Positions 13,234-44,296 of a DNA stretch of 51,903 nucleotides are shown here, piece after piece. A program made the position numbers and the translations under genes. The stretch spans positions 1 through 51,903 of the forward strand of contig JAVHLM010000041.1 in the NCBI GenBank assembly GCA_031082125.1, written 5' to 3'. Source of the stretch: Candidatus Eremiobacterota bacterium (GTDB taxonomy: Bacteria > Vulcanimicrobiota > CADAWZ01 > Ess09-12). How positions within the stretch are numbered: position 1 is the stretch's first letter; each line of letters starts with the position of its first letter. Below the pieces are notes generated by a model. That model saw nothing but the letters and a program-made list of their open reading frames with translations. It was not told the DNA's origin and searched no databases.

Positions 13234-13293
13234 ATCACCCATCCGATAGTGCGGTCTTTTATGTGAAAATACTGGCGAAGAGGAAACGATCCG

Positions 13294-13776: not shown

Positions 13777-13780
13777 CGGA

Positions 13781-13987: not shown

Positions 13988-14011
13988 CAGGCCGGGCCGG
14001 GGAGGATTGCA

Positions 14012-14701: not shown

Positions 14702-14734
14702 GCAAACACTCTGAAGATATAAGGGGGGCACTAC

Positions 14735-15367: not shown

Positions 15368-15397
15368 AAGGCGCCATGGATACTCTGCGTTTCTATG

Positions 15398-15427
15398 TCC
15401 CGGGATCCCGTGATCCCGGGATTTTTT
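15398..15427 (+). terminator. Rho-independent terminator after jag
   Basis: A perfect 10-bp stem (TCCCGGGATC with GATCCCGGGA), 4-nt loop CCGT and six T. It separates the rpmH-jag operon from mnmE. Confidence 0.93.
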
Positions 15428-15466
15428 ACGGGGCGCCTCGAATTCTGACCATATCGGGTGAGTGCC

Positions 15467-16852: not shown

Positions 16853-16855
16853 GCC

Positions 16856-17590: not shown

Positions 17591-17596
17591 TTTTCA

Positions 17597-18532: not shown

Positions 18533-18555
18533 GGCCGTACTGCGGGAGGCATGGC

Positions 18556-20187
18556 GTGGCGGAAGAACATATGGCTCTTTACAGGAGATGGCGCTCTCAG
18601 AGGTTCTCAGAGGTCATCGGCCAGGAGCATGTGGTAAAGACTCTCCAGAACGTGGTGAGGAACAAGAAGCTTCTCGCCCATGCCTATCTTTTCTGCGGTC
18701 CCAAGGGAACGGGCAAGACAAGCGTCGCCAGGATCTTCGCCAAGGCCCTCAACTGCCTTGAGGGCCCCTCCGATGAGCCCTGCAACCGCTGCGCAAACTG
18801 TCTGAAGATTACCGAGGGGAACTCCCTGGACGTGATGGAGATTGACGCTGCCTCCCATACCTCGGTGGAGATGGTCCGGGAGCATATCATTGACAAGGTG
18901 AATTTTGCCCCCATTGAGGGGAAGTTCAAGATATATCTCATCGACGAGGTCCACAAGCTCTCCAACCATTCCTTCAACGCCCTTCTCAAGACCCTTGAAG
19001 AGCCGCCCTCTCATGTGATATTCATTCTTGCCACGACCCATCCCCACGAGCTCCTTCCCACGATCCTCTCGCGGTGCCAGCGCTTCGATTTCAGGAGGAT
19101 CTCGCAGCAGGACATCATGAGGAGGCTCCGCATGGTGTGCCAGGAAGAGGGCTATGCCATAGAGGAGGGGGCCCTCGGTATCATTGCTCAGGCTTCAGAT
19201 GGCGCGCTCCGCGATGCCCTCGTGGTCCTTGAGCAGAGCTTCTCTTTTTCCGAGGGGGAGGTGACGACGGCGCAGGTGGCGTCACTTCTGGGTCTCACCG
19301 AGGAATCGCTCCTCTTCACCTTCAGCCAGCTTATCGGCGAGGCTAAGGTGTCGGCGGTGCTGCAGCTTTTAGACAAGCTTGTAAGAGACGGCAAGGACAT
19401 GCTGCAGTTTGTCCATGAGCTCATAGAGCATTACCGCAGGCTTCTTATCGTGAAGGTGAGCAAGGAGGCCCCCCTTATCCTCGAGATTGCCGAGGACGGC
19501 TATGAGAGGCTGCAGAAAAACGCCGGTATCTACGAGCCCGGTGACATCCTGCGTATCATCAAGATTCTCTCTGATCTCATGGTGGAGATGAAAGATGCCA
19601 CCTGTGAGCGCGTTCTGCTCGAGGTTGCCCTTATAAAAATGTCCACGAAAAGGCTTGATCCCTCCCTGAGCGCTCTCAAGCAGAGGCTTGATTCCCTGGA
19701 GAAGAGGATTTTTGACGAAAAAGGTGAACTGAAAGAAAAAGCTTCTCCCCCGGAGGTGAAACAGGAGGTCTCCCCGGCGGCTGAGGCGCCGAAGGAAGCG
19801 CCGCCCCCTCCCGAGGAGAAGAAGGATTCCCATGAGGGTCACGGCGGCGGGCTGTGGGAGCATTGGCCCCGGATCCTGCAGGCCGTGAAGAACGAGAAGA
19901 TGCCCCTTTACGCCGTCCTCGTTGACACGAAGCCGAGGCTCGCCGAGGGGGACAGGGTGATCATAGGGGTCAAGAAGGGTTTTAACTTCCACAAGGAGCA
20001 GGTGGAGACTCACAGGGCCCTGATTGGGAGCATCATCTCGAAGTTCCTGCACCGCCCCATCTCTGTCGAGGCGGGGGGCATCGAGGGAGAGGACGGCCAG
20101 GGCGAGCTCTTCAATGACGATTACGCCGAAGAGCACAGGAAATTTGTGAAAGACGTGATGGACGTTTTTGGGGGGCGTATCATCTAA
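18556..20187 (+). CDS. dnaX: DNA polymerase III subunits gamma/tau
   Basis: 543 aa. Clamp-loader AAA+ ATPase: ALYRRWRSQRF start, Walker A GPKGTGKTS, a zinc module with C, CNRCANC, Walker B IYLIDEVHKL and the SRC sensor (ILSRCQRF). After about residue 370 a Pro/Glu-rich linker leads to a C-terminal region (ILQAVKNEKMPLYAVL) as in tau proteins. GTG 18556 has GGGAGG 7 nt upstream; ATG 18571 is an alternative. No obvious frameshift slip site was examined in detail. Confidence 0.95.
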   Translation: MAEEHMALYRRWRSQRFSEVIGQEHVVKTLQNVVRNKKLLAHAYLFCGPKGTGKTSVARIFAKALNCLEGPSDEPCNRCANCLKITEGNSLDVMEIDAASHTSVEMVREHIIDKVNFAPIEGKFKIYLIDEVHKLSNHSFNALLKTLEEPPSHVIFILATTHPHELLPTILSRCQRFDFRRISQQDIMRRLRMVCQEEGYAIEEGALGIIAQASDGALRDALVVLEQSFSFSEGEVTTAQVASLLGLTEESLLFTFSQLIGEAKVSAVLQLLDKLVRDGKDMLQFVHELIEHYRRLLIVKVSKEAPLILEIAEDGYERLQKNAGIYEPGDILRIIKILSDLMVEMKDATCERVLLEVALIKMSTKRLDPSLSALKQRLDSLEKRIFDEKGELKEKASPPEVKQEVSPAAEAPKEAPPPPEEKKDSHEGHGGGLWEHWPRILQAVKNEKMPLYAVLVDTKPRLAEGDRVIIGVKKGFNFHKEQVETHRALIGSIISKFLHRPISVEAGGIEGEDGQGELFNDDYAEEHRKFVKDVMDVFGGRII

Positions 20188-27091: not shown

Positions 27092-28378
27092 ATGACACGG
27101 GCAAAGAGCGCCCCCCGAGAGCACTTCTCTCTCAAGATGCGGGATGCCGAGATCGTGATAGTAAACGGCGATGAGTATGCCTGTGCCCTCAGGTATGCCC
27201 CCGGTGAGACACCGGTAGTGCTGCTCAAGGGCAGGAAGGCTGCAGCGAAGGATATTATCTGGTCCGCCCAGGAACTGGAAGTCCCCATCGTTGAGATGAC
27301 GTCCTTCGATGAAGAGTATTATTCCGGGCTCACCCCCGATGAGGTGATTCCCGAGAGCCTTTTCAAGCCCGTATCACAGGCGATGGCCTTTCTTTACCGG
27401 ACCAAGGCGTCGCCTCATCTGCTCCGTTTTGTAAAGACTCTCAGGAAGAGGCCCGGCATCCTCACGACAAGCACTGAGGAGCTCGTGGAGCGTTACAGCT
27501 CCTTTCTCGAGGTGTCGCTCGTGAGCCTTGAACTGGGCAAGGGCCTCTATGGAGAAGTGGAGATCCTCAGGGAGCCCCTTGACACCTTCAGGCAGAGGAT
27601 CGCCCTTGAGATAGGCCTTGTGATTCCCGAGATAAGGGCCCATTACAACTCAAAGCTCGGTGCACTCCATTACAGTCTGCGCCTGAGGGATGTCCCCGTC
27701 TATGAGGGCAACGTGGAAGGCACCCTGGAGCCCAATGAGTACGTCCATCAGATCATAAACAGGCTGCGCACCCTCATTGTGAGACAGTCCTGGCAGCTCC
27801 TGGGCTATATTGAGGTGAATGCTCTCCTCGAGAGGATGAAGAAATACAATCCCCTTCTCTTCAGGGATCTTTTCCCCGAGTATTTTTCCGTGCCTTCACT
27901 GCGCTTTGTGCTGCGGAACCTTCTCAAGGAAGGCATATCCATAAGGGATTTGTCGAAAATCTGTGAGGTTATCAAGGAAAATCTCCATATTACCCGGGAT
28001 CCCGACGTTATCACCGAATTTGTCCGTGCCGCCTTTGCTCCCTATCTCTGCCACAAGTACAAGAACAGCGAGGGGGGCCTCGAGGTGCTTCTTCTTTCGC
28101 CTGAGATGGAGAAGATGATAGGGGGCTCCGTGAAGGAGGCTTCCCATGTGAGATGGCTTGATCTCGAGCCTGAGAACGGTTACAGGCTTCTCACCTCCCT
28201 GGGAGATGAGCTCAAGAAGGCCCAGAGCATAGGCCTTGATCCCGTGCTTCTGGTGACGCCTGGACTGAGACGCTTCATCAAGAGGCTTCTTGAGAACTCT
28301 TTTCCCGACCTTCCGGTGATTTCTTACAATGAGATAGTTCCCTTTGCTGATGTCCGCTCGGTGGGGGTAGTCGGTTAA
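27092..28378 (+). CDS. Soluble fusion of FlhB and FlhA cytoplasmic domains
   Basis: 428 aa with no membrane helix. Residues about 17-100 follow the FlhB/YscU cytoplasmic domain: AEIVIVNGDEYACALRY, VVLLKG, ELEVPIVE, IPESLFKPVSQAMAFLYR. The autocleavage motif NPTH is replaced by NGDE (25-28). Residues about 130-428 follow the FlhA cytoplasmic domain: LELGKGLYGE, IALEIGLVIPEIRA, LEPNEYVHQIINRLRTLIVRQSWQLLG, IRDLSKICEVI, and the ending LPVISYNEIVPF..VRSVGVVG. The stretch around the usual FGLPAVWI segment is missing. In normal type III or flagellar export these domains belong to two membrane proteins. GGAGG lies before the ATG. No flagellar gene is nearby. Its job is unknown; chaperone or cargo binding is a guess. 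Confidence 0.82.
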   Translation: MTRAKSAPREHFSLKMRDAEIVIVNGDEYACALRYAPGETPVVLLKGRKAAAKDIIWSAQELEVPIVEMTSFDEEYYSGLTPDEVIPESLFKPVSQAMAFLYRTKASPHLLRFVKTLRKRPGILTTSTEELVERYSSFLEVSLVSLELGKGLYGEVEILREPLDTFRQRIALEIGLVIPEIRAHYNSKLGALHYSLRLRDVPVYEGNVEGTLEPNEYVHQIINRLRTLIVRQSWQLLGYIEVNALLERMKKYNPLLFRDLFPEYFSVPSLRFVLRNLLKEGISIRDLSKICEVIKENLHITRDPDVITEFVRAAFAPYLCHKYKNSEGGLEVLLLSPEMEKMIGGSVKEASHVRWLDLEPENGYRLLTSLGDELKKAQSIGLDPVLLVTPGLRRFIKRLLENSFPDLPVISYNEIVPFADVRSVGVVG

Positions 28379-31641: not shown

Positions 31642-33174
31642 CTACTGGGAGATCATCTTGCGGTAGCTTCCGTACTGCTTTATCTTGAAGAGGGTGAGCT
31701 CTCCGTGGGTGAACATCTCCCAGGCCACCTCAAGCATCCTTATGAGGTTGCAGAACTTCGCGAAGCTGAAGAGGGGGCCCGGGTGAGACCTCAGCCACGA
31801 GGAGTGCGAGAGCCACCTTATCAGGGAGCGGGGAATGAAATTCTTGGAGACAAGAAGGTAAAGGGAGAGCCAGAAAACTTCCTCCTTCGGGCGGGGATAA
31901 TCCATGCTCACCCGGAACTGGCGCCATGACTTGGTAGCAAAGCCTTCCACATCCTCCTCCCTGATGATCCCCTTGGCGAGAAGCTCCTCGGTGAGCTTGG
32001 TGCCGGGGAAATAGTTGAGGGAGTAAAGGTAGAGCTTGTAAGGCCTCGGAATCACAAGGAGGAACTCCAGCATCTCTCGCTTGTCCTCCTCGGTGGCAAA
32101 GGGGTTGTCAATGATGGCGTCGTACACCACCTCTATCTTAAGCTCCCTGTTGAGCTCGCCGAAGCGGAGAATCTGCGCGTTGCCGGGCGTCCTGTTGAAG
32201 ATCTCCCTTGTCTCCCTCTTGGAGCCGCTCTCGATGCCCACCTGGATCTTTACAAGCCCGGCCGATTTCAGGCTCTCCAGGATGTCCCTCTTGAGAAGGT
32301 GGGGATTCAGCAGGCACTCGAGGGGTACGGCTATCTTCTCGCGGTACTCCTTGCAGAACTCGTCTATCCATACATGGTCGAGGGCAAAGGCCGTGTCATC
32401 GTCAAGCTTGACACGCTTGAGGCGCGGGAAGCGCTTTTTTACCTCGAGGAGCTCGCCGATGAGGTATGGCACGCTCTTGTGGCGGTAATATTTTCCCTTC
32501 CCCTTGTAGATCCTCCTCAGTATGCTGTTATAGCAGTAACTGCAGTTGTAGGGGCATCCCCTCGTGGCGTAGATGCGGTACTCGGCGCCGCGGAGAGTGG
32601 GCTCGCCGGAGGTGACCCTGCCCTCATCGACAAGATATTTTCCCTCGTCGTCAATGTCGGGATAGGGAAGCCTGTCCAGGTCCTCCACAAGGGGCCTCAT
32701 GGAATTTTTCACGATCTGCCCCTCGCGCCGGAACCAGAGGTTCTCAATGGCGGTGATATCCTCACCCTTCTCCATCTTCTCCACGAGCTCCACGATGGCA
32801 TCGTCGCCCTCGCCGATGCAGATCATGTCGGCCGTCTCAAGGCATTTCTCGGGGGCCGACGTGGCATGGATGCCTCCCCATATGACGGGGATGGCGAGCT
32901 CCCGCTTCACCCTCTCGGTGAGGGACTTGGCGATGGAATACATGGGGGAGATGAAGGAGAGGCCGAGGAGGTCTGCCCCGAGGTCCTTCACAAGCTTGAG
33001 ATAGAGGTCGAACTCGCTCTCGGGGGGAAAAGTGACGTTGTTGTTGCGCCATTCGCGGAAGAAGACGATGAAAACCTTATGGCCCGCTTTTCTGAGGGCT
33101 GCCGAAAGATAGCGGATCCCCGCGTTCTCAGCGCCGTAGAAGGTGGTGAGGACCGTTGTGAACTCTTTACCCAT
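31642..33174 (-). CDS. Cobalamin-binding radical SAM protein
   Basis: 510 aa from ATG 33174 (GGGGAGG upstream). The N-terminal B12-binding-like fold shows in VLTTFYGAENAGIRYLSAALRKAGHKV and LGADLLGLSFISPMY; the radical SAM site is CPYNCSYC, with VGIESGS later. The C-terminal third contains a Trp-rich basic region. Such enzymes often transfer methyl groups or rearrange carbon skeletons. Last gene of the 31.6-44.3 kb cluster, overlapping the preceding radical SAM gene by 8 nt. A canonical DxHxxG is not obvious, so cobalamin binding is inferred from overall architecture. Confidence 0.8.
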   Translation of the reverse strand: MGKEFTTVLTTFYGAENAGIRYLSAALRKAGHKVFIVFFREWRNNNVTFPPESEFDLYLKLVKDLGADLLGLSFISPMYSIAKSLTERVKRELAIPVIWGGIHATSAPEKCLETADMICIGEGDDAIVELVEKMEKGEDITAIENLWFRREGQIVKNSMRPLVEDLDRLPYPDIDDEGKYLVDEGRVTSGEPTLRGAEYRIYATRGCPYNCSYCYNSILRRIYKGKGKYYRHKSVPYLIGELLEVKKRFPRLKRVKLDDDTAFALDHVWIDEFCKEYREKIAVPLECLLNPHLLKRDILESLKSAGLVKIQVGIESGSKRETREIFNRTPGNAQILRFGELNRELKIEVVYDAIIDNPFATEEDKREMLEFLLVIPRPYKLYLYSLNYFPGTKLTEELLAKGIIREEDVEGFATKSWRQFRVSMDYPRPKEEVFWLSLYLLVSKNFIPRSLIRWLSHSSWLRSHPGPLFSFAKFCNLIRMLEVAWEMFTHGELTLFKIKQYGSYRKMISQ

Positions 33175-34279
33175 GGGCCACCTCCCCGCGGCTGCCCTTC
33201 GCCGTTCCATTCACCCTTCCCCGGCCCCTTCCCTGCATTACGAGGGCCTCCAAAAAGCTCGATGCCTCGGTGAAGACAAGGGACACCTCGCTCCAGCAGG
33301 GCCTCAGGCACCCCGGGCACGCGGCTATGGTCTTCCGGCATGCCTTGAAGTACTCTTCCGACTTGAAAAGCTCAAGGACCTCGTCGCTGTCGGCAGCGAT
33401 TTCCATGGGCTCTTCTTTGTAGCCCTTGAACCGGTGGCAGAGAGAGAAGAAGCCCTCAGGGCTCACGGAGAAGTAAAGCATGCCCGCCAGGCAGCGCCAC
33501 CGGGGCTTCTCGCCGAGGAGGTACCTCCTCGAGCGTTCGAGGAATGCCGTGCTGTTGAAGATGTGCTTCCCCTTCCTTTTCATGGCAATGAGCATCCTGT
33601 AAGTTTCTTTGATGGTCTCGTGGTCGTCGGGCGAGAAGTTGAGGTCCTGCTGAGCCTCGGAGCAGCTCAGGGCCTCGCCGCCGTAATGGTGCACCTCCAG
33701 GGGCACGAAGGAGCAGTAAAAGCCATATTTTTCCGCCAGGCCCACGAAAGCGGGGATCTCGCCGATATTGAGCTTCGAGACGACGGTGTTGATTATCCCC
33801 AGGCCGCCTGTGCGGGCGAAGTGCTTCCCGAAGAAGTCCAGGGACTCGCTGGCCCGCTCCCATGCGTCGTCCCTGTTGCAGATATAGGCCTGCATTTTGG
33901 CGTCGCTCGTGTCAAGTGAGATGGACACGTGGCGCAGGCCCGTGGCGAGGACCTCGTCGAGGAGCTTCCTGTCGGTGATGATGCCGTTGGAGAGGAGCCT
34001 CACCGTGATGCCCTCGTCCATGAAGGCCTTGATTATCATGGGGAGGTCATCGCGCATGAAAGGCTCGCCGCCGCCCAGGGAGATGAACGAGACGCCCAGG
34101 GAGCCGAAGTTTCTGGCCATCTTCCTGATGCGCTCGAGGGGAAGCTCCAGAGAGCGCTTCGCCGTCTTCCAGAGGCCGCACATGCGGCATGTGAGGTTGC
34201 AGCGGTGCGTGACGCCATAGTGGACATAGACGGGAGTCCGCTTGAAGAGGAGGGCTTTCGTAAGTGGCACTGGTCTCAT
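33167..34279 (-). CDS. Radical SAM protein with SPASM-like tail
   Basis: 370 aa. The radical SAM site is CNLTCRMC, with GGGEPFMR, SNG and SISLDTS strands. A C-terminal C..C group (CLAGMLYFSV, SLCHRF, CPGCLRPC) suggests an auxiliary cluster. The MRPVPLTKALLFKRTPVYVHY start is slightly reminiscent of HpnH-type enzymes, but this is not firm. ATG 34279 follows the stop of the preceding gene by 2 nt. The long open frame upstream of it is antisense overlap. Substrate unknown. Confidence 0.8.
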   Translation of the reverse strand: MRPVPLTKALLFKRTPVYVHYGVTHRCNLTCRMCGLWKTAKRSLELPLERIRKMARNFGSLGVSFISLGGGEPFMRDDLPMIIKAFMDEGITVRLLSNGIITDRKLLDEVLATGLRHVSISLDTSDAKMQAYICNRDDAWERASESLDFFGKHFARTGGLGIINTVVSKLNIGEIPAFVGLAEKYGFYCSFVPLEVHHYGGEALSCSEAQQDLNFSPDDHETIKETYRMLIAMKRKGKHIFNSTAFLERSRRYLLGEKPRWRCLAGMLYFSVSPEGFFSLCHRFKGYKEEPMEIAADSDEVLELFKSEEYFKACRKTIAACPGCLRPCWSEVSLVFTEASSFLEALVMQGRGRGRVNGTAKGSRGEVAHG

Positions 34280-34281
34280 CG

Positions 34282-35700
34282 CTACCCCCGGGAGCAGATA
34301 ATGCCCACACCGGCCCTGAGCTTGCGCATGAGGTCCGGGAGGCTTTTCACGTCGCGGAGCTTCTTCATCATCTGCCCCGGCCTGAAGTAGAACTTCTTGT
34401 AGGCAATGTCCACGAGACGGTAAAGCTCCTCCCCCGTCATGAACTCCGTCCACACTTCCGGCACGAAGCCTTCCTCGGGGGAGGTCACGAAGCGCTCCCA
34501 CGACTCCTTTTTAAGGATGCCCCGGGCTATCCCCTCGTCGTAGAGGGCGGTGCCGGGATAGGGAGTGAGGACGCCGAAAAGGCAGTAGTCAGGGTCAAGC
34601 GAGCAGGCGAAGCTGATGGTTTTCATCACGTCCTTCGGCGATTTTTCGTGGGGCGAGCCTATCATGAAATAGGCCACGGTGGTGATCTTCTTTTTCCGGA
34701 GCATGGCGAAGACGGCCCTGATCTCCTCGACGGTGATGCCCTTTCCCAGGGCCTTGAGGCCCTCGTCGGTGCCCGTCTCGACGCCGAGCTGTATCCTTGT
34801 GCAGCCTGCGGCGATGAGGCTGTCTGTGAGCTCCTCGGAGATGAGGTTGATGCGGGCCCTCACGTTCCAGCTTATCCTGATACGGCGCTTCACAATCTCC
34901 GCGCAGAGGTCCAGGGCCCTTTTCCGGTCTACGTTGAAGGTGTCATCGACAAAGTAGATCTCCCTGATGCCCAGCTTCTCGCATTGCTCCATCTCGTCGG
35001 CCACGTCTGCCGCCGAGCGCGCCCTGAAGGTGGAGCGCCCCGGCGTGGAGCAGAAGGTGCAGCGATAAGGGCAGCCGCGGCTTGAGACCAGGCTTGTGGC
35101 CGTCACCTCGTGGCCTATCACGTAGTAGTATTTCCTGTAATCGATCACGTCGCGCCGCGGGTGCGGGAGGCTGTCGAGGTCCTCGATGGCGCGGGGCGGC
35201 CCCGTGTTCACCACTTTCCCGTCGCGTCTGTGGAGGATGCCGGGTATTTTATCCAGGGGCTCTCCCTTTTCATGGGCGGCCACCACGTCGGCAAAGGATT
35301 TCTCTCCCTCGCCGACGACGACACCGTCAACGTCCTTGAAGGTCATGGAGGCTTCGGGAAAGGCCGAGGCGTGGGCTCCTCCCCACCAGACCTTGGCCTC
35401 GGGGAAGTGTGCCTTCACGAGGGCGCTCACCTTGAGCATGTCGATGAGGTTGTGGGTGTGGCCCGAGATGCCGGCGATGTCGGGTTTTTCTTCCTTTATG
35501 CGCTCCTCGATCTTCTCGTATGTGAGGCTGTCGCCCGGGGAGTCGATGATGGTGACCTTGTGGCCCCCGAGGCTTGAAAGGGCGGCCTCGAGGTAGAGGA
35601 GGCCCAGGGGCGGGAGGCTCGCCACTTCCTCGCCCACGCGGTGGGGCACCTCGGAGTAAATCCTGTGATCATTGGGGGGATTGATGAGAAGGATGTTCAT
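34282..35700 (-). CDS. Cobalamin-binding radical SAM protein (BchE-like class)
   Basis: 472 aa from ATG 35700. N-terminal cobalamin-type fold: ILLINPPND, GLLYLEAALSSLGGHKVTIID, DIAGISGHTHN, WWGGAHASAFPEA. Radical SAM motif CPYRCTFC, then VGVETGTDE and LTPYPGTAL in the C-terminal part, as in the large class including BchE and HpnR-type methylases. It is 7 nt downstream of the U32-like gene. A methyl transfer or ring-forming role is likely; substrate unknown. Confidence 0.86.
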   Translation of the reverse strand: MNILLINPPNDHRIYSEVPHRVGEEVASLPPLGLLYLEAALSSLGGHKVTIIDSPGDSLTYEKIEERIKEEKPDIAGISGHTHNLIDMLKVSALVKAHFPEAKVWWGGAHASAFPEASMTFKDVDGVVVGEGEKSFADVVAAHEKGEPLDKIPGILHRRDGKVVNTGPPRAIEDLDSLPHPRRDVIDYRKYYYVIGHEVTATSLVSSRGCPYRCTFCSTPGRSTFRARSAADVADEMEQCEKLGIREIYFVDDTFNVDRKRALDLCAEIVKRRIRISWNVRARINLISEELTDSLIAAGCTRIQLGVETGTDEGLKALGKGITVEEIRAVFAMLRKKKITTVAYFMIGSPHEKSPKDVMKTISFACSLDPDYCLFGVLTPYPGTALYDEGIARGILKKESWERFVTSPEEGFVPEVWTEFMTGEELYRLVDIAYKKFYFRPGQMMKKLRDVKSLPDLMRKLRAGVGIICSRG

Positions 35701-35707
35701 CGATGCC

Positions 35708-36493
35708 TCACAGGGGGATCTCGGGCTCATGGACGAGCCTGTCGATGGAGAGCTTCTCGAGCTCCCCGGGGAGCTTCTCGTTCACGAAGAACTGGGAGTT
35801 CCCCGCGAGGGTCACCGTGACGGGCATGTCCTTGTGGGAGAGGCTGAAGTGGAGCTTCTGGCATTCCCTCCCGCAGGGAAAGATGGCCCTCAGGGACTCG
35901 GTGCGGTTCGTGCAGGAGTTCGACAGGCACAGGCGCGTCGTGGTGATATAGCCGTAAGGATAGTAAATCGATGCCGGCAGCTCGTTTTCCCGCTCGATGC
36001 CGTGGAGGAGGTTGTCAAGCTCGATGCGCCGGAAGCCCATCTTCTTGAGAAACTCCACCGTGACGGGCACGTCGGAGGTGGAGCGGCGGAAGTGATCCAC
36101 CATCGTGGCGGGGACCTTGTCCAGGATCCTCAGGATCTGGGGCCCCCTCTTCTGCTTCGAGAGGAGTCTCCCCAGAAGGTACGGGTGCTTTGTGCCGAGG
36201 CTCCTGAGCTTTCTTAAGAATCCCCAGTCATTGATGACTATCTCGAAATCACCCAGGAGCCCCTCGAGAGCCTCGGCGAGGGCCACCCACCGGGGGAACT
36301 GCTCCTCCGTGAGGTAGGGCGTCACGAGGGTGAAGGCCATGGAGGCCTTCCCTGCGTGGTCCACGGCCTCCTTGAGAGCGTCTTTGGAGGGGATGAGGCG
36401 GTCGCAGAATTCCTGGCCGAAATAGAGCCTCCCGTACCCGTTTTTTGCGAGGGCGAGGCTCTCCGGCCTCACAACAAACACCGCTTTTTCCAT
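35708..36493 (-). CDS. U32-like Fe-S protein, small partner
   Basis: 261 aa. Barrel-like protein containing Cys at NSCTN, RLCLSN and FPCGRECQKLHF, the spacing expected for a [4Fe-4S] site. It resembles the smaller partner (UbiV-like) of paired U32-family proteins, with the large U32 gene immediately upstream and joined by a 1-nt TAATG overlap. UbiU/UbiV pairs hydroxylate ubiquinone without oxygen, taking the oxygen from prephenate. Whether this one does so is inference. Start ATG 36493. Confidence 0.6.
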   Translation of the reverse strand: MEKAVFVVRPESLALAKNGYGRLYFGQEFCDRLIPSKDALKEAVDHAGKASMAFTLVTPYLTEEQFPRWVALAEALEGLLGDFEIVINDWGFLRKLRSLGTKHPYLLGRLLSKQKRGPQILRILDKVPATMVDHFRRSTSDVPVTVEFLKKMGFRRIELDNLLHGIERENELPASIYYPYGYITTTRLCLSNSCTNRTESLRAIFPCGRECQKLHFSLSHKDMPVTVTLAGNSQFFVNEKLPGELEKLSIDRLVHEPEIPL

Positions 36494-37596
36494 TACGTCG
36501 TCACCTTCTCCCTTTGTGAGCCCGTCCTGGGGTAGTAGCACCAGTCAAGGCAGTTTGAGCCGATGACTTTTCTGTAATGCTCGCGGCAGAACTTCTCGTA
36601 ATCTCCCTGTGACGGCCTTTTCTCCACCAGGTGATCCAGGCAGCCCCTCAGGAACCTCACATCGCGCTCCTTTTTCCAGAGCGGGTTTTCACGGCCCACG
36701 ATCTTCACCGACACGACGCCGGCACGGTGGAAGCGGTACAGGTCGCAGGCACCGCAGGGATCAAGGCCCGAGTAAACGTTGAAGGTGGACTCGAGCCACT
36801 TTATCGCCGCCTCTTCCTCCTCCTTATTCCCGCTTCCCTTCGCTATCGCAATGTCGTAGTTGAGAAGGCACGCCGAGTCGGGGCTTCCCCCCAGGGCCCT
36901 TGTAAACTTTACGGCCATCTGCGGCGTAAGGGCACGGAGTGACTTGAAAAAAGCCTGATCGATGCCGAACTTCTTGGGGAGCTGCCAGCTCCCCTTGTGG
37001 AGAATCTCGTTTGTGCCATGCTGGTAAGTGCAGAAGCCGTCGATGTTCTTGCATCCCGCGTTGAAGATGAAGGCTTCCACCTCCATGAAGTCGATTGTCT
37101 TCGCAAGGTGCACGATCTCGTCGGCGGTATGGTGGCGTGGAAGCACGATGCGCTCGGCCCCGAACTCCTCGTGGTAGAAGCGGGCCGTCTCGCTGTTGAA
37201 AGTCGTCCCCCCCGTGGAGATATGGATCTCCGTGGGCCACTTCATCTCCTTCAGGGTGAGCAGGAGCCCCAGGTCGGCAACGATGAGGGCGTCAAGGGGA
37301 ACAGCCCTTATACGGTCCAGATGCTCGAGGAGCTGCTCATACTGGGGCTTCGTGTAAAGGGCGTTAAGGGCGAGGAAGACGCGGGCCTTGTGCTCATGGG
37401 CTATCCTCACCACCTCTTCCAGGTCTTCATAGCTTTCTATGTTTGACGATGACCATTCCCTCCTGTTGATGGAGGCGATGTTGGTGTACTTCTTTCTCCA
37501 GTCCGACGCAAGGACGCCCACGTAGAGCTCTTCGGCCCCGGCCTCGATGAGAGGGAGAATCTCAGCGGGACCCCGGGCAGGCGAAAGGATCTTCAT
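36493..37596 (-). CDS. U32 peptidase-family protein
   Basis: 367 aa. U32 signature: ILSPARGPAEILPLIEAGAEELYVGV at the start, ALNALYTKPQ, and DALIVADLGLLLTLKE. Cys residues NAGCKNIDGFC, SACLLNY, CGACDLYRF and NCLDWCY form possible Fe-S ligands. U32 proteins include UbiU, TrhP and RlhA, acting in hydroxylation of quinones, tRNA or rRNA. Paired with the next small gene, which argues for a UbiU/UbiV-like job. The context points to a small-molecule substrate. Overlaps the Tes-like gene by 4 nt. Confidence 0.82.
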   Translation of the reverse strand: MKILSPARGPAEILPLIEAGAEELYVGVLASDWRKKYTNIASINRREWSSSNIESYEDLEEVVRIAHEHKARVFLALNALYTKPQYEQLLEHLDRIRAVPLDALIVADLGLLLTLKEMKWPTEIHISTGGTTFNSETARFYHEEFGAERIVLPRHHTADEIVHLAKTIDFMEVEAFIFNAGCKNIDGFCTYQHGTNEILHKGSWQLPKKFGIDQAFFKSLRALTPQMAVKFTRALGGSPDSACLLNYDIAIAKGSGNKEEEEAAIKWLESTFNVYSGLDPCGACDLYRFHRAGVVSVKIVGRENPLWKKERDVRFLRGCLDHLVEKRPSQGDYEKFCREHYRKVIGSNCLDWCYYPRTGSQREKVTT

Positions 37597-38942
37597 GCTT
37601 TTCCCTCCTTCTCAAGTGCCTCTTGGTACCAGATTTTCTCGCGCTTGATGTTGGCCCTTGAACCCGACTCCTCATAGCCCACGTCGATTGAGAGCTCGCC
37701 CTTGCCGCAGTGCTCGGCGATTGCCTTGTCGAAGATATAGGGATCGCAGGCGGTGATGAACCCCAGGATGAGAACCTTCGTGGGGAGCTTGGAGAGATCG
37801 AAGCCCACCAAGAGGCGTATCTTGAGGATCAGAAACTCCAGGAAGAGCCCTATGGAGTGGCTGTTGAGCATTGAAAGGCCCAGGCCGAGAAACCAGAAGA
37901 GCCTCCCGAGACCGTTGCTCCTGGGGATCCCGGCAAGCCTGTCAAGGTGCTTTTCCACCCTGTCCCAGTTGAACATCTTCTCGATGGGGAGGTAGCCCTT
38001 TTTAGTTCTCACCAGGATATAATGCTGGACGTAGAGGCACTTTCTGACACCCATCAGCGAGAGGAGGGCGAAGTAGAGCTTCTGGAACTGGAAGACCCCC
38101 TTCCTGGTGATGAGACCTCCTGACTTTTCTTCCACTATATCAATGACCTCGTCAGGCGTGAGGCAGTGGTCATGGGCTGTCTCGCGGGCATAGCCCAGGG
38201 AGCGGAGCCCCAGGAAGAAGAGCTCCCGCACGTAGGGCTTGTCCCGGAAGAAGTCCAGCATTTTCTTGATCTCATCTTCATTCACCTTCGGCACCACCAC
38301 CATGACGAGATCGGTGGCAAGGTTGTATTTCTGGAGGTTATCCAGGACTTTCAGCTTGTTCTCCGTGAGCTTCGCTCCCCTGATCTTCATGTAGGCCTCG
38401 TCGGAGAAGCCGTCCATCTGCAGGTGGACCTCGTCGCAGCCGGCCTCGGAGAGCATTTTGCAGTAGCTCTCATCGGCAAGCTTGATGCCGTTGGTATGGA
38501 GGGCCGCGATATGACCCCTTTTTTTGATGGCCTTGATGATGTCGGGGAGATCGTCGCGCACAGTGGGCTCAGCCGAGATAAGGTCGATTTTGAGCTTCCG
38601 CTTCTGGTCCATGAATTTCTCGAGGTCCTCGAGAGAATACTCCGAACGCTCGTTCATGTTGGCGCTTGCAAGGCAGATAGGGCATTTCAGGTTACAGCGC
38701 TCGGTGAGGCGCACGAGAAAATCCCTCTGGGGCAGGCGCTCCTTCATCACGGAGAAATAGTAGCGGTCAAGCTCCCCATGGTACCAGGGATGGGCCGAGA
38801 GCTTCACCTCCGTCATGCCGTGGGAAGGGCACCTCTTGACGAGGAATACCCCTTCATCTCTTGATACCAGAGTAGCCGGTACTTCATCGATGCAGGTGGG
38901 GCACACGCTCTGTGTCTCCCTGAGCACGGTATCATTTCCCAT
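37593..38942 (-). CDS. COG1964-type radical SAM protein (Tes-like)
   Basis: 449 aa. An N-terminal Cys-rich site (C14, C17, C38, with HG after it; SVCPTCIDEVPATLV, VKRCPSHG) precedes the radical SAM motif CNLKCPIC (C83, C87, C90). Both the N-terminal motif and the order are characteristic of the COG1964 group that includes tetraether-lipid synthase Tes. GGEP reads SAEP. The C-terminal half has a hydrophobic region (FWFLGLGLSMLN) that could contact lipid. A role in joining or altering lipid chains is plausible but distant; orthology to Tes is not shown. 13 nt from the aminotransferase gene. Confidence 0.75.
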   Translation of the reverse strand: MGNDTVLRETQSVCPTCIDEVPATLVSRDEGVFLVKRCPSHGMTEVKLSAHPWYHGELDRYYFSVMKERLPQRDFLVRLTERCNLKCPICLASANMNERSEYSLEDLEKFMDQKRKLKIDLISAEPTVRDDLPDIIKAIKKRGHIAALHTNGIKLADESYCKMLSEAGCDEVHLQMDGFSDEAYMKIRGAKLTENKLKVLDNLQKYNLATDLVMVVVPKVNEDEIKKMLDFFRDKPYVRELFFLGLRSLGYARETAHDHCLTPDEVIDIVEEKSGGLITRKGVFQFQKLYFALLSLMGVRKCLYVQHYILVRTKKGYLPIEKMFNWDRVEKHLDRLAGIPRSNGLGRLFWFLGLGLSMLNSHSIGLFLEFLILKIRLLVGFDLSKLPTKVLILGFITACDPYIFDKAIAEHCGKGELSIDVGYEESGSRANIKREKIWYQEALEKEGKA

Positions 38943-38955
38943 AGTGAGCTCCTTC

Positions 38956-40188
38956 TCAGGCCTTTATCTTTCCATGGGCGGCTTTCAGGCTTTTCGCGAT
39001 ATGATCGATAATTCCTTCGGTCATCGAGGGATAGAGGGGAAGGTGAAGCTGCCTCGTGGCGGCTCCCTCGGCCACAGGGCACTCGCGCCTGAAGGAGGAA
39101 AGCTCCGGGAGCAGGAAACAGGCCTTGAGATACCCGGGCGACGTGTCCACGCCGAGCTTGAGGAGCTCGGCAGCAAGCGCCCCCCTGTTTTCGCACTTGA
39201 TGACAAAGCTCAGGAAGATATGGAAAGCCTTTTCAGGGATGACGGGAAGGGTGATTCCCCCGAGATCCCCGAGCTTCTCGATGAGGAGCTTCCCCCACCT
39301 GTGGCGCGCCTCGTTCTTCCTGTCAAGATCTTTGAGCTGCGAGAGGCCGAGCCTCCCCTGGAGGTCCGAGCACAGGAGCTTTTCAATTGAAGGCTTCTCC
39401 ATCGAGACATGCTCTTCAAAGGCTTCATGGAGCGGGTCTTTTCCTCCCTTTGCAAAGAGCCTCAGGAAGGGATAAAGGGTGAGGCTGAAGATGAAGGGCT
39501 CGGTGCCGCATTTGAAAGCCATCGCCTTGATAAGGGGGGCGAGCATTTTCGCTCCTGGCGACCTTGCGGCCAGGGAGGCCCTGAGCTTCTCCGCAAGGCC
39601 CGGGTCGGAGGTGGCTATCATGCCTCCTCCCATGGTGGTGAAGTTCTTGGTGAGGGAAAAGCTGAAATAGCTCGCGTCGCCCAGTGAGCCCACGGTTTTC
39701 TCGCCGTAGCGGGCACCGCAGCCCTGGGCGCAGTCCTCGATGACCTTGAGGCCAGAGGACCTTGCCTTTTCGAGGAGGGTGTCCATGGGACAGGGGCAGC
39801 CGTAGAGGTGGGTGGGAACTATTGCCGAGGCCTCCCTGAGGGCTTCATCAGGGATGGCTTCTGGATTCATGTTGAACGTGCGGTCATCAACATCGACGAA
39901 ACAGGGTACAAGGCCGCAGGCCCTCGCCATGGCAGGCACCGAGGCATGGGTCCATGCGGGGATGATGATCTTTGACCCCTCGGGGAGCCCCATGCTCTTT
40001 ATGATGAGAAAAAGCCCCAGGCGCGCCGAGGGCACGAAAAAGGCGTGCTTTGCGCCGATGTAGGTCGCAAAGGCTTTTTCAAGCTCCTCTATGGGCCCCA
40101 TGGTATGCCCCGCCGAGGGGAGCCCCGAGAGCATCATGAAAAGCTCGCCGGTGGAAAGGGCCAGGGAAAACCTGGGAATCACCGCCAT
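38956..40188 (-). CDS. DegT/DnrJ/EryC1 aminotransferase
   Basis: 410 aa. A PLP enzyme of the sugar-aminotransferase fold: AFFVPSARLGLFLI, VFVDVDDRTFNMNPE-like block (FVDVDDRTFN), EDCAQGCGARYG, and the PLP lysine in FSFSLTKNFTTMGGGMI. Members transaminate keto sugars or cyclitols. A long insertion (about residues 215-260) is atypical. The start ATG 40188 lies 11 nt after the oxidoreductase gene. An amino sugar or amino-alcohol headgroup may be a product of this cluster. Confidence 0.88.
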   Translation of the reverse strand: MAVIPRFSLALSTGELFMMLSGLPSAGHTMGPIEELEKAFATYIGAKHAFFVPSARLGLFLIIKSMGLPEGSKIIIPAWTHASVPAMARACGLVPCFVDVDDRTFNMNPEAIPDEALREASAIVPTHLYGCPCPMDTLLEKARSSGLKVIEDCAQGCGARYGEKTVGSLGDASYFSFSLTKNFTTMGGGMIATSDPGLAEKLRASLAARSPGAKMLAPLIKAMAFKCGTEPFIFSLTLYPFLRLFAKGGKDPLHEAFEEHVSMEKPSIEKLLCSDLQGRLGLSQLKDLDRKNEARHRWGKLLIEKLGDLGGITLPVIPEKAFHIFLSFVIKCENRGALAAELLKLGVDTSPGYLKACFLLPELSSFRRECPVAEGAATRQLHLPLYPSMTEGIIDHIAKSLKAAHGKIKA

Positions 40189-40199
40189 AGGCTTCTCCT

Positions 40200-41528
40200 T
40201 TACGGTTTTTTCTCACCGAGGAACCTGTCGGTGACCTCGAAGACATTCTCGATGGAATGATCCATGTTATTATACCAGAAAAGCCCTGTTCTTCCAAAAA
40301 GGGTGAGGTTTTTAAAGGGGGCCAGAGTTTCCTTTGCTTTTGCCAGGTGCTCCTGGTAGTCAACGCGGTACACGGGGTAAGCGGCGGGAATGGGCTCTAT
40401 ATGCACAGCCTGGACCTCATCGCGACTGCCGATCATCTTCACCTTCACAAGGTCCGAAATGACGCGGTCTTTGAACTTTTCAGGGTCTCTCCAGACCTCG
40501 TTTCCCTCGCTCGCCGTGACCTCGACACAGAGCCCTCCCTTCCCCCGGGGCGCCGTGTCAGGCGAGAAGAGGAGGGGATCGGTGACCCTTGAGAAGATGA
40601 TGTCCTTGGCGCCGAAATAGCACCACTGGAAGCGGTAGCGCGGGAGCTTCCGGAGCTCCACGTTGTAGAGCATGAGGGAGAGGTACGAAAGGCTCAGGCC
40701 TTCAAGGCCCAGGAGCCCGTAAAGATCGTCAAGCCTTCCCGACCAGAAGAGGGTGTCCACTTCAAAATCCGAGCCTGCGGCCGTGACGGAGGTGACCGTT
40801 CCCCCCTCGCGTGTGATCTTGACCGGCGCTGCCGAGAGATGGACCTCGCCTCCCTTTGCCCTGATTTTCTCCCTCAGGTTGTCGCAGAAAACCTGGCACC
40901 CTTTCCTGGGATAGATGAACTTGGTCTTTTCAGGAAGAGGCAGGAGCATCGTGCGCAGGATCAGGAAAAGGCTTCCCGTGGTGATTTTCTTGCTGATGGT
41001 GGCCCGCTCCACGCCTATCTTGGCCCAGTCGGCATGGGTCTCATGGCCTGCGATACCTATGAATTTCTGTGTGTAGTCACGGAAGAAGGTGCTATAGAGA
41101 GTTTTTCCATATTTCCTGAGAACATAGTCCTCGAAGCTCTGCTCCTCGCCCGGGGGATGGGCGGCAAACTCCTTGGCAAAGATGTCGATAAAGGCCTGCA
41201 CCGCCACGAGGGGAGGAAGGAGAAACACGCTCTTGAGCCTCAGGGGCCAGAGATGGTACTGGCTGAGAAAGTGCACGCCCGAGCGGCGGTCTATGGTCAG
41301 GTAGTCGTCGTCCAGCGTGTCGGTGATGAAGCGCAGAACCCGGTCATTGGTCGTGAAAAAGCGGTGGGGGCCGATATCGAAGATGAAGTCGCCGTAGGTG
41401 AAGGTCCGCGCCAGTCCCCCCGTGTCCCTCTCCTTCTCGAGGATCACCACGGGGAAGCCCGCCTCGGCAAGTATGTGCCCGCAGGAGAGCCCCGCCACGC
41501 CGCCGCCTACTATCACTATCTTTTTCAT
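40200..41528 (-). CDS. FAD-dependent oxidoreductase (amine-oxidase/UGM fold)
   Basis: 442 aa. A dinucleotide-binding start (KIVIVGGGVAGLSCGHILAE), then RDTGGLARTF and FDIGPHRFF, which are typical of protoporphyrinogen-oxidase/phytoene-desaturase-like and UDP-galactopyranose-mutase-like FAD proteins. The C-terminal LTLFGRTGLFWYNNMDHSIENV resembles the mutase-like branch. Substrate unknown; together with DegT and the flippase it could belong to sugar-lipid formation. Starts 36 nt after the flippase-like gene. Confidence 0.85.
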   Translation of the reverse strand: MKKIVIVGGGVAGLSCGHILAEAGFPVVILEKERDTGGLARTFTYGDFIFDIGPHRFFTTNDRVLRFITDTLDDDYLTIDRRSGVHFLSQYHLWPLRLKSVFLLPPLVAVQAFIDIFAKEFAAHPPGEEQSFEDYVLRKYGKTLYSTFFRDYTQKFIGIAGHETHADWAKIGVERATISKKITTGSLFLILRTMLLPLPEKTKFIYPRKGCQVFCDNLREKIRAKGGEVHLSAAPVKITREGGTVTSVTAAGSDFEVDTLFWSGRLDDLYGLLGLEGLSLSYLSLMLYNVELRKLPRYRFQWCYFGAKDIIFSRVTDPLLFSPDTAPRGKGGLCVEVTASEGNEVWRDPEKFKDRVISDLVKVKMIGSRDEVQAVHIEPIPAAYPVYRVDYQEHLAKAKETLAPFKNLTLFGRTGLFWYNNMDHSIENVFEVTDRFLGEKKP

Positions 41529-41564
41529 AGTCTTTTCATCTTCTTTCCTGGCATCTTTTGGGGA

Positions 41565-42569
41565 TCAAGAGAGGGCTGCCTGTTCCTTCTGCGGTTCTTC
41601 GTCGATCTCTGCCAGGGGGGGAGGGCACTCCTTGGCGCCGTGGCATGCAATGGTTCCGTGGAAGTAATAGGCTGCCCCAATCATGGCGGAAGCGAACTTC
41701 CCTGCATAGCTTAAAATCGAAAGGGAGAAGATCCCTTCCAATGGAACGTCAAGCGGCCTGAACACGGCGAGGAAGCAGGCTTCCTGGACGCCGATGCCGG
41801 CGATGGAGATGGGGATCTGCGAGATGATGAGGATGAAAGGCACGGTGAAGTAATAGACCTGGAGAGGAACGGTGAGGGAAAGGGACTGGGCGAGGAGCTG
41901 GAAGTACCAGATAATGAGGAGGGGCTGGGGCAGGGTGATGATAAGAGCCTCTATGACGAGCCTCAGATTTTTCCTGAAATGGGGGCCGATGCGCTCCAGG
42001 CTCTCCACGATGCTTTTCAGGGCTTCAAAGCGCTTGAGCTTCCCTACAAGGCCGAAGGCGCCGAACATGACACATGAGCCAAGAATCCCGGCTCCTCCCA
42101 CGATGGCGAGGATCGAGGGGAACTGCGTGTGCCTGAAATTCTCGTAGTCGATGGCAAGTCCCACCGACGCCATCAGGAGCAAGGCCATGAAGCCTGTCCA
42201 ACGCTCCAGGACCACCGATATGAAGGAGGCCACGTATTCCTTGTTGTCCTTCGAGAGGTCCAATGTCCGCTTGATCTCCCCTGCGCCTGCAGGGAGGAAC
42301 GTGTTGATGAAGGCACCCACCATGTAGATGCGGAAAGCTTTCCTGAAGCTCACCGTGATTCCCAGGGAGTGGGCGATCATCTGCCACTTGTAGACGTTCA
42401 TGACATTTCCTGCCATGAAGATGACGAGAGCCAAGAGGACATAGGAAATTTTAGCATGAACGAGGAGCTTTATCCATTCGGTGTTCTTGAACTGCGAGAT
42501 GATGAGCCACAGGAGGCCTATGCTGATGGCTATTTCTAGAACCTTGCGCCATTTCTTCAAGTTTTCCAT
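41565..42569 (-). CDS. LPG_synthase_TM flippase-like membrane protein
   Basis: 334 aa, about eight membrane helices (ISIGLLWLIISQF, VLLALVIFMAGNVMN, and so on). The pattern FINTFLPAGAGEIKRTLDL and ISIAGIGVQEACFL marks the LPG synthase TM/UPF0104 family, which includes flippases and proteins in glycolipid assembly. Start is uncertain: ATG 42569 lacks a clear ribosome site; an in-frame ATG at 42680 would add 37 residues. Its presence indicates that the cluster product is membrane-linked. Confidence 0.78.
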   Translation of the reverse strand: MENLKKWRKVLEIAISIGLLWLIISQFKNTEWIKLLVHAKISYVLLALVIFMAGNVMNVYKWQMIAHSLGITVSFRKAFRIYMVGAFINTFLPAGAGEIKRTLDLSKDNKEYVASFISVVLERWTGFMALLLMASVGLAIDYENFRHTQFPSILAIVGGAGILGSCVMFGAFGLVGKLKRFEALKSIVESLERIGPHFRKNLRLVIEALIITLPQPLLIIWYFQLLAQSLSLTVPLQVYYFTVPFILIISQIPISIAGIGVQEACFLAVFRPLDVPLEGIFSLSILSYAGKFASAMIGAAYYFHGTIACHGAKECPPPLAEIDEEPQKEQAALS

Positions 42570-42686
42570 GGGGATGATGTCGGCCTTCTGTCCTGATACT
42601 CTTACTGTATATTCAGATATACTTAACCACGACAAATGTTTCTCCTTCAGAAGGGACAGGAAATGGGAAAAATTCCCCACCTGCCT

Positions 42687-43226
42687 TCAGGAGGCGGCGA
42701 GCATTCCGGCAATGGCCTCCCGCGCTTCATACCGGTAGTCAAGCTTTCTCCTGTCAAGCTCTTTTGAAATCTTCTCAAGCATGGCGTAATGGCACTTCCC
42801 GGCTCCCAGTTCCCTGTAAAGGGCCATGACATGAGGAAAGTTGAAAAGGATCATGGCGCCGTAAGGGTTTCCCAGGTGATGAAGCGCAAAGGCCAGGTCC
42901 AGCCAGCTGTCAAGGTTTCCGGGATTCTTCGCGACGCTCTGGAAGAAGCACCCCGCCGCTTCGCGGTAATTCTCGCCGAGATAATGAAGGTAGCCCTCCA
43001 TGGCATGGAAGAGCTCCTCGTCATAGCGCTCGCGCCATGTGCGCACCCTCATGAGGAGTCCCGGGAGGGCTCCCGGCTTTTCGAAGAGGAAATCGGCCAG
43101 GGAGTGAAAAAGGGTATCGGCGCGCATCCTCCCCTCTGCAATAAGGTTTGTCTCCCGATCCTCGAGAGGGATACCCGTGAGAGAGAAGAAAGTGCGCTGA
43201 ATTTCTCTGAAATCGCTTTGCTCCAT
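42687..43226 (-). CDS. TPR-like helical protein
   Basis: 179 aa, soluble and mostly helical. Residues about 80-125 contain one clear tetratricopeptide-type pair (EGYLHYLGENYREAAGCFFQSV and LDLAFALHHLGNPYGAMILF). Function not recognised; probably a protein-binding adaptor. AAGGGG before ATG 43226. It opens the leftward run after the Cys-motif gene and could be part of the same cluster. Confidence 0.6.
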   Translation of the reverse strand: MEQSDFREIQRTFFSLTGIPLEDRETNLIAEGRMRADTLFHSLADFLFEKPGALPGLLMRVRTWRERYDEELFHAMEGYLHYLGENYREAAGCFFQSVAKNPGNLDSWLDLAFALHHLGNPYGAMILFNFPHVMALYRELGAGKCHYAMLEKISKELDRRKLDYRYEAREAIAGMLAAS

Positions 43227-43342
43227 GGTGGTCTGCCCCTTTTTCTCGCCGGGAATCACAGCACTATTCTACCACGAATTGCATGAATTACCATAAATCT
43301 CAAGAGTGATTTTTCGAATATAAAAGGGCTCTTGTGGCCACG

Positions 43343-44296
43343 TTATTTAAACTGGATAAGAAAGGGCTTTTCAAGCGTGCTGTTCCCTTGGAGGTCGGCG
43401 AGGTGATCCTTTCCCTTGAATACCTTCACGGTCTCTCCTTCCACCACCAGGCTGTCCCCCTCCCTGAGCTGCGGAAGGTAGCTCTGGGGCGCCGTGACAA
43501 GGTCAGCAGAATAGGCTTCCTGGTAATGTAGACGGTTCCCTTTGATTACTCCCCTGAAGCCATAGATGTGCCGCTCGTAGAAGACAAGGTAAGGAAGGCG
43601 GAGGGCCTTGTCAGTGCGCCTCACAAACTCCGGCTCAAGGGCCAGGAGTGCTTTCCTGAAGGCTTCAGCCTGCCTGATGGTGGCCCGGCACCGCCATGAG
43701 CATGGCATGTGATAGATGTAGGAATAGACAGAGTCCTTGGTGAGAGGGTTGCAGAGATAGTGCGGGGGGGCCCCGCCCCTGGTGTTCCTGTGTATCTCAT
43801 AGAGGAAGCTGTAGCGCTTCCAGTTGTTGTAGAACCTGAAGAATGAAATGCAGCACTCGGGATATCCCAGGTAAGAGCCGTAGCGGAGGGTGTCGGCGCG
43901 GGGCTGCTGGATGACGCGCCCCCTGATGATGAGGGGATACCACATGCCATGGAGAAGAAGCTCTTTGCGCTTTGAGAGGAACACATGGGCCTGTCCCTCT
44001 ATGTCAGCCTCTACAGGGGCCCCGAAGGCCGATGTGGAGGTGATGTACTCCCTGCCGACGATAGAATCGGGGATGCGGGTTCGCGGGACCCCCACAAAAA
44101 GGGCGTCCACCCTGGCGTGAAGGCCGTAGCGCGCGCAGATCTCCAGGTAGTCCGGGAGCGCCTCACGGGGGACCCAGTCATCCATGAGGGGCTTATGGCC
44201 CAGGACTGTGGCCATGATGAGGGATATCTGCGAGCTGTTCCTCTTCACTTCCACAAACTCGCGGCAGAATTTCTCGGGCACATAAGGTGAATACAT
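43343..44296 (-). CDS. Cys-motif protein of unknown function (DUF483-like)
   Basis: 317 aa from ATG 44296; a GTG at 44326 would add ten residues and has a GAGAGGA site, so the start is open. The diagnostic feature is LGYPECCISFF with a later CSWRC, a Cys pattern resembling DUF483 proteins, whose function is unknown. The C-terminus is beta-rich. It may be the first gene of the cluster, though 116 nt separate it from the TPR-like gene. DUF483 assignment is from the motif only. Confidence 0.5.
   Translation of the reverse strand: MYSPYVPEKFCREFVEVKRNSSQISLIMATVLGHKPLMDDWVPREALPDYLEICARYGLHARVDALFVGVPRTRIPDSIVGREYITSTSAFGAPVEADIEGQAHVFLSKRKELLLHGMWYPLIIRGRVIQQPRADTLRYGSYLGYPECCISFFRFYNNWKRYSFLYEIHRNTRGGAPPHYLCNPLTKDSVYSYIYHMPCSWRCRATIRQAEAFRKALLALEPEFVRRTDKALRLPYLVFYERHIYGFRGVIKGNRLHYQEAYSADLVTAPQSYLPQLREGDSLVVEGETVKVFKGKDHLADLQGNSTLEKPFLIQFK

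What the first reader, a model, noticed from the sequence alone, without database searches (positions are those of the whole stretch)
31642..44296. Candidate novel biosynthetic cluster: four radical SAM enzymes, U32 pair, DegT, FAD oxidoreductase and flippase
Most genes overlap or are separated by a few nucleotides and all read leftward. Two cobalamin-type radical SAM enzymes, a Tes-like one, a SPASM-like one and two oxygen-independent hydroxylase-like proteins suggest extensive anaerobic tailoring of a carbon skeleton; DegT and the UGM-like flavoprotein suggest an amino-sugar part; the flippase suggests membrane transfer. ispH lies close on the other strand. I know of no described pathway with this set.
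Basis: partly seen in the sequence, partly recalled or inferred. Interest (0 to 1): 0.82.

Follow-up and report, generated by a model that had tools for sequence, protein, structure and literature searches.

The report
Conserved radical-SAM lipid-or-sugar operon
An eleven-gene operon from an uncultivated bacterium, most of which is conserved in distant relatives but matches no described pathway, probably builds an unknown modified sugar or lipid of the cell envelope without using oxygen.

Summary
Window 31642-44296 holds eleven minus-strand genes, mostly overlapping or a few bases apart: four radical SAM enzymes (two with B12 domains), a U32 pair, DegT, a FAD protein, a flippase-like membrane protein and two unknowns. 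No gene reaches a family-specific (equivalog) NCBIfam cut-off; only the flippase passes a general subfamily-domain one. The set is a real evolutionary unit. In five families of the same phylum the block FAD-DegT-(second radical SAM, X)-B12rSAM-radical SAM-B12rSAM recurs in order, partly or whole, and the two B12 enzymes occur in the same 10 of 149 genomes. The Tes-like gene co-occurs (8 of 10), but is unlinked where the U32 pair is missing. The U32 pair is an insertion found in three of these genomes; it is UbiU/UbiV-like with the Fe-S cysteines kept. Related B12 enzymes sit beside PMT-type glycosyltransferases, sugar-nucleotide genes and flippase homologues, which favours a membrane-linked (amino)sugar or glycolipid product. 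The product is unknown. Novel as a gene set; mechanism inferred.

The parts
43343..44296 (-). A: DUF483-like protein (PF04467, below gathering score) with many invariant Cys/His/Trp residues
   Evidence: Pfam 19.1 bits vs 25; homologues about 49% identical beside the cluster in G015, G030, G034, G040
42687..43259 (-). B: small TPR-like protein
   Evidence: weak TPR_17; homologues about 40% identical beside A in G030 and G034
41565..42680 (-). C: LPG_synthase_TM / TIGR00374 flippase-like membrane protein
   Evidence: PF03706 126.9 bits; TIGR00374 53.0 vs cut-off 43.2; homologues beside K-prime in four paralogous loci
40200..41528 (-). D: FAD oxidoreductase, PRK07208 / UDP-galactopyranose-mutase-like
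   Evidence: orthologues 43-47% identical start the block in f11/f13 genomes
38956..40188 (-). E: DegT/DnrJ/EryC1/StrS-type PLP aminotransferase
   Evidence: PF01041 226.5 bits; best solved relatives perosamine synthetase and scyllo-inosose transaminase; conserved in G008, G015, G024, G030, G034, G040, G042
37593..38942 (-). F: radical SAM with HMPTM-type Zn ribbon, Tes/TrsS superfamily, own subfamily
   Evidence: in 10 of 149 genomes of the phylum
36493..37596 (-). G: U32 protein, UbiU-like
   Evidence: PF01136 108.6 bits; UbiU model 96.5 vs 440; hhalign to E. coli UbiU 99.3% over residues 1-192
35708..36493 (-). H: UbiV-like U32 partner with four conserved Fe-S-type cysteines
   Evidence: no Pfam/NCBIfam hit; hhalign of a 14-sequence alignment to E. 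coli UbiV 92.5%; C34/C193/C211/C215 align with UbiV C39/C180/C193/C197
34282..35700 (-). I: B12-binding radical SAM, BchE/HpnJ/AprD4-like
   Evidence: orthologues in 10 of 149 genomes; clade support 97/95
33167..34279 (-). J: radical SAM with five extra conserved C-terminal cysteines (SPASM-like)
   Evidence: alignment; always beside I where a J orthologue was found
31642..33174 (-). K: B12-binding radical SAM, own subfamily
   Evidence: orthologues in the same 10 genomes as I; clade support 97/98

Best explanation
The operon encodes one O2-independent pathway that makes a modified, probably amino-sugar-bearing, membrane-linked molecule (a polyprenyl- or lipid-linked sugar, or a glycolipid) of the cell envelope. 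Shown: the genes form one operon-like unit; D-E-X-I-J-K is an inherited block; F and the U32 pair are linked additions in three lineages; I and K evolved together, including as a paralogous I'/K' set. Inferred: E adds an amine to a keto-sugar or cyclitol; D is a flavoprotein acting on the sugar or lipid; B12 radical SAM enzymes I and K, with J (and X elsewhere), rearrange, deoxygenate or alkylate the skeleton, by analogy with HpnJ (glucosamine to cyclitol on a lipid) and AprD4; F acts on a hydrophobic part at an unactivated C-H; G/H put in hydroxyl groups without O2, as UbiU/UbiV do; C moves the product across the membrane.
For: Gene content and spacing. Conserved order D-E-X-I-J-K in G024, G030, G034, G040 and G042; D-E-I-J-K in G015; E-X-F-G-H-I-J in G008 and X-F-G-H, then I two genes on, in G012. 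I and K in the same 10 of 149 genomes; F with each in 8 of 10. Co-duplicated I'/K' clades. Paralogous I'/K' loci carry an aldo-keto reductase, large membrane proteins (some PMT_2 by Pfam) and C-like flippases. The acidobacterial K relative in L173 lies among genes that read as GDP-sugar dehydratase/reductase, GT2 and GT-C by their N-termini (by eye). DegT relatives are sugar and cyclitol transaminases; I's best solved relative is AprD4. The U32 pair keeps the Fe-S cysteines of UbiU/UbiV (PMC6747719).
Against: No substrate or product is known, and no gene reaches a family-specific equivalog cut-off. The window operon itself has no glycosyltransferase and no sugar-nucleotide gene. The sugar link is strongest for paralogues, not for this operon. 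D is far from known UGM (52.8 bits vs 303.75). C's family is called flippase-like from a few members only. G000 lacks X, so the core is not invariant.
Confidence: 0.45

Rival explanations
1. Membrane-spanning or ether-lipid pathway: F couples alkyl chains as Tes or Mss do, and the other genes make or decorate the head group.
For: F aligns with Tes (7TOL) over residues 8-284 with the same Cys3His ribbon and CxxxCxxC. F has hydrophobic C-terminal stretches. Bacterial Tes homologues are proposed to make brGDGTs (PMC8941075).
Against: 136 bits vs the Tes cut-off 450 and 191 vs 490 for TrsS; no CPxxCGLC motif; in f13 genomes F lies away from the block; F is absent at the threshold used from G015 and G048, which have I, J and K.
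Confidence: 0.2
2. Hopanoid side-chain pathway: X and I act like HpnH and HpnJ on a hopanoid or hopanoid glycoside.
For: I scores 197 bits with HpnJ and X 54-56 bits with HpnH. f13 genomes G024 and G030, which carry the block, have true squalene-hopene cyclase domains.
Against: G000, G008 and G012 have no true squalene-hopene cyclase (best hits 20-30 bits inside long ORFs). Scores are far below cut-offs (577.6 and 225). X is absent from G000. No other hpn gene was found beside the block.
Confidence: 0.08
3. Quinone-type pathway: G/H hydroxylate a prenylated ring as UbiU/UbiV do, and the radical SAM enzymes modify it.
For: UbiU-like G and UbiV-like H with conserved cysteines.
Against: The U32 pair is absent from 7 of the 10 genomes that hold I and K; no UbiA, UbiT or methyltransferase gene is in the operon; DegT and the UGM-like protein are unexplained.
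Confidence: 0.08
4. Peptide (RiPP-like) maturation: J, X and the B12 enzymes modify a precursor peptide.
For: J and X have SPASM-like extra cysteines; another G012 cluster with PaaK, B12 radical SAM and a U32 gene carries a PqqD-like small ORF (L094, by eye).
Against: No conserved short ORF was seen in the blocks (not searched below 90-100 aa); DegT, UGM-like and flippase genes do not fit.
Confidence: 0.06

Closest known systems
Hopanoid cyclitol-ether branch (HpnI-HpnK-HpnJ) and HpnH
   Same: B12-type radical SAM (I) related to HpnJ; a lipid-linked amino sugar is a plausible substrate
   Different: I 197 bits vs 577.6; no squalene-hopene cyclase in the window genome; DegT, U32 pair and UGM-like gene are not part of hpn clusters as described
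Tetraether lipid synthase Tes (7TOL) / TrsS
   Same: F shares the Zn ribbon and radical SAM core (alignment over 277 residues)
   Different: far below both model cut-offs; lacks the CPxxCGLC cluster; own C-terminal motifs RKCLYVQH and TACDP..CGKGE
UbiU-UbiV anaerobic ubiquinone hydroxylase
   Same: paired U32 proteins with matching Fe-S cysteine patterns
   Different: sits in a biosynthetic operon with radical SAM enzymes, not beside ubiT; UbiU model 96.5 vs 440; H below detection by single models
AprD4 (apramycin radical SAM dehydratase)
   Same: best solved relative of I (109 bits, residues 180-406)
   Different: low score, no aminoglycoside cluster around it
UDP-galactopyranose mutase
   Same: D aligns with UGM (T. 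cruzi-type 4dsg nearly full length) and PRK07208 proteins
   Different: 52.8 bits vs 303.75 for the UGM family; a different subfamily
DVU_1551-1557 (TrsS) system
   Same: G008's cluster has DVU_1553-like AMP ligases next to the Tes/TrsS-like F
   Different: the rest of that system is not seen beside F; the window has no such ligase; a better TrsS-system candidate is a separate locus (L016)

Membership tests
Tes (NF045702) | score above the equivalog cut-off | tested here: not met
   136.5 vs 450 bits
Tes (NF045702) | N-terminal Cys-rich ribbon and CxxxCxxC radical SAM motif | tested here: met
   C14, C17, C38, H41 and C83, C87, C90
Tes (NF045702) | CPxxCGLC auxiliary-cluster motif seen in the solved Tes | tested here: not met
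   the segment is missing in F (alignment)
TrsS (NF045646) | score above the equivalog cut-off | tested here: not met
   190.8 vs 490 bits
UbiU (NF047963) | score above the equivalog cut-off | tested here: not met
   96.5 vs 440 bits
UbiU-UbiV type U32 pair (works like) | two adjacent U32 proteins, four Fe-S cysteines each | tested here: met
   H: four cysteines align with UbiV; G: C182 and C189 align with UbiU C169 and C176, with further invariant C243, C281, C284 (PMC6747719)
UbiU-UbiV type U32 pair (works like) | O2-independent hydroxylation activity | not testable with these tools
   needs biochemistry
HpnJ (TIGR03471) | score above the equivalog cut-off | tested here: not met
   I 196.8, K 99.4 vs 577.6 bits
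Hopanoid pathway | squalene-hopene cyclase in the genome | tested here: not met
   only 20-30-bit partial hits in G000
B12-dependent radical SAM | B12-binding domain plus radical SAM core above Pfam cut-offs | tested here: met
   I and K: PF02310 and PF04055 both above cut-off
UDP-galactopyranose mutase (TIGR00031) | score above the equivalog cut-off | tested here: not met
   52.8 vs 303.75 bits
DegT/DnrJ/EryC1/StrS | Pfam gathering score | tested here: met
   226.5 vs 19.8 bits; substrate not testable

The most novel reading that the evidence does not exclude
A dedicated anaerobic pathway, with at least one paralogous sister system, in which a pair of B12 radical SAM enzymes with SPASM-type radical SAM and U32 partners builds a previously undescribed class of membrane-linked carbocyclic or branched amino sugar (or glycolipid) in a poorly known bacterial phylum.
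Probability: 0.35. Interest if true: 0.78.

Novelty: new variant of a known kind. Interest (0 to 1): 0.58.

Why it matters
Several uncharacterised subfamilies (F, H, I, J, K, X, A) can now be tied to one pathway by order and co-occurrence, so a single product analysis would assign many enzymes at once. It links the new O2-independent U32 oxidases, so far known from quinones and RNA, to a radical SAM biosynthetic operon. The same core without the U32 pair in f11/f13 genomes gives a natural comparison for what the pair does.

Tried and rejected
F as Tes, TrsS or Mss: below Tes and TrsS cut-offs; Mss sequences not available here. Hopanoid link: rejected for the window genome. Wider spread: U32b in Acidobacteriota gave 7 genomes, all of a more distant pair in other contexts; the Bacteroidota/Ignavibacteria sample gave none; K in Acidobacteriota gave one near full-length relative in a different context. 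The single genome-contig scan returned only distant Zn-ribbon radical SAM proteins, mostly Flavobacteriaceae. Viral contigs and plasmids: nothing close. Long open frames at F in G030/G034/G036 looked like fusions but are high-GC read-through. Literature searches for this gene set found nothing.

Full report
What is there. The stretch 31642-44296 holds eleven minus-strand genes (A to K, see parts). The window is one whole contig of a 7.43 Mb genome, 97.6% complete. Spacing is operon-like: most neighbours overlap or lie within 13 nt; A-B (83 nt) and C-D (36 nt) are wider. The next genes are on the other strand: a ClpX-like AAA+ gene, then ispH, downstream; a QueT-type gene upstream.

What each gene resembles. 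No gene reaches a family-specific equivalog NCBIfam cut-off. F is closest to TrsS (191 of 490 bits) and Tes (136 of 450). Ten F sequences share a Cys3His ribbon, the radical SAM motif, and own C-terminal motifs RKCLYVQH and TACDP..CGKGE, but not the CPxxCGLC motif of the solved Tes. G is UbiU-like (hhalign 99.3%). H has no library hit, and a six-row alignment did not detect UbiV, but a 14-row alignment did (92.5%), and its four conserved cysteines align with the four Fe-S cysteines shown for UbiV in PMC6747719. I and K are B12 radical SAM proteins; I's best solved relative is AprD4. J has five extra conserved cysteines shared with X. E's relatives are sugar and cyclitol transaminases. D is UGM/PRK07208-like. 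C is PF03706.

Is the set conserved? Yes, as a core with accessories. In G015, G024, G030, G034, G040 and G042 the block runs D-E-(X)-I-J-K (X missing in G015; D cut by the contig end in G042), and G048 has I-J-K. A homologues lie near the block in G015, G030, G034 and G040, with B in G030 and G034. In G008 the order is AMP ligase-E-X-F-G-H-I-J-AMP ligase; in G012 it is X-F-G-H, two small genes, I. There K lies elsewhere. Among 149 genomes of the phylum, I and K orthologues are in the same 10; F is in 10, of which 8 overlap. Hypergeometric p is 4e-10 for F with I and 9e-16 for I with K; relatedness of genomes inflates this, but the positives span five families. The U32b gene H is in four genomes, clustered with F and I in three. 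G036 and G046, which have F but no full I or K, are 72% and 61% complete.

A sister system. I and K each have a paralogue (I', K'; 34-40% identical) in many of the same genomes. Trees put I and I', K and K' in separate, supported clades. I' and K' lie together, with an aldo-keto reductase (the G008 copy carries Fe-S domains), in G012, and K' lies beside that reductase, large membrane proteins and C-like PF03706 proteins in other genomes. In G008, K' and K are flanked by large membrane proteins, one of them PMT_2 by Pfam. One acidobacterial genome has a K relative among genes whose N-termini read as GDP-sugar enzymes, GT2 and GT-C proteins (read by eye). This is why I favour a membrane-linked sugar over a pure lipid, while noting that it is evidence from relatives.

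How it may work. See Best explanation. The steps are inferred. Precedents for radical SAM enzymes acting on a lipid-linked sugar exist (HpnJ on glucosaminyl-bacteriohopanetetrol, PMC12583986). U32 oxidases hydroxylate without O2, with prephenate implicated as donor (PMC11574389). The same core without the U32 pair in f11/f13 suggests that hydroxylation is either optional or done there by another enzyme; I could not test this.

Who is it? A phylum with 149 held species, including a family with genomes near 8 Mb, would fit Eremiobacterota/Vulcanimicrobiota, whose family Ca. Eudoremicrobiaceae has 8 Mb genomes (PMC9259500). This is inference only.

Limits. Only one phylum gave clear blocks; other phyla could be reached only through Acidobacteriota and Bacteroidota-type samples. 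Gene calls in high-GC loci were made by a simple longest-ORF rule and checked by tblastn. No structure model was usable.

Noticed in passing
window 27092-28378 (+): A protein joining the C-terminal parts of FlhB (PF01312, profile 242-334) and FlhA (PF00771, profile 455-654): an odd fusion of two flagellar/type III export cytoplasmic domains.
   Followed up: no
window 233-1684 (-), 3257-5217 (+): Three further radical SAM genes at the left end of the contig, two of them overlapping.
   Followed up: no
window 11520-20187: dnaA, mnmE, parB and dnaX close together: probable origin region of the chromosome.
   Followed up: no
L066 (G008:C43:77000-96000): At least four U32 gene pairs, an AMP ligase, a B12 radical SAM and a nitrilase within about 16 kb: another U32-rich cluster.
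   Followed up: partly
L067 and L094 (G012): Clusters with AMP ligase, U32b-type gene and B12 radical SAM; L094 also has a small PqqD-like ORF and a longer ORF that looks like an S24/signal peptidase.
   Followed up: partly
L123/L196 (G024:C118): The D-E-X-I-J-K block lies divergently next to what reads as the division and cell-wall gene cluster (mraW, ftsI, murE, murF, mraY, murD, ftsW, murC) (by eye).
   Followed up: no
L014 (G000:C45) and L012 (G007:C50): Other Tes/TrsS-like Zn-ribbon radical SAM genes lie next to B12 radical SAM genes, in the window genome too.
   Followed up: no
L027-L056: Flavobacteriaceae carry a conserved 464-aa Zn-ribbon radical SAM related to F (about 28% identical) after a prolipoprotein-transferase-like membrane gene.
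   Followed up: no
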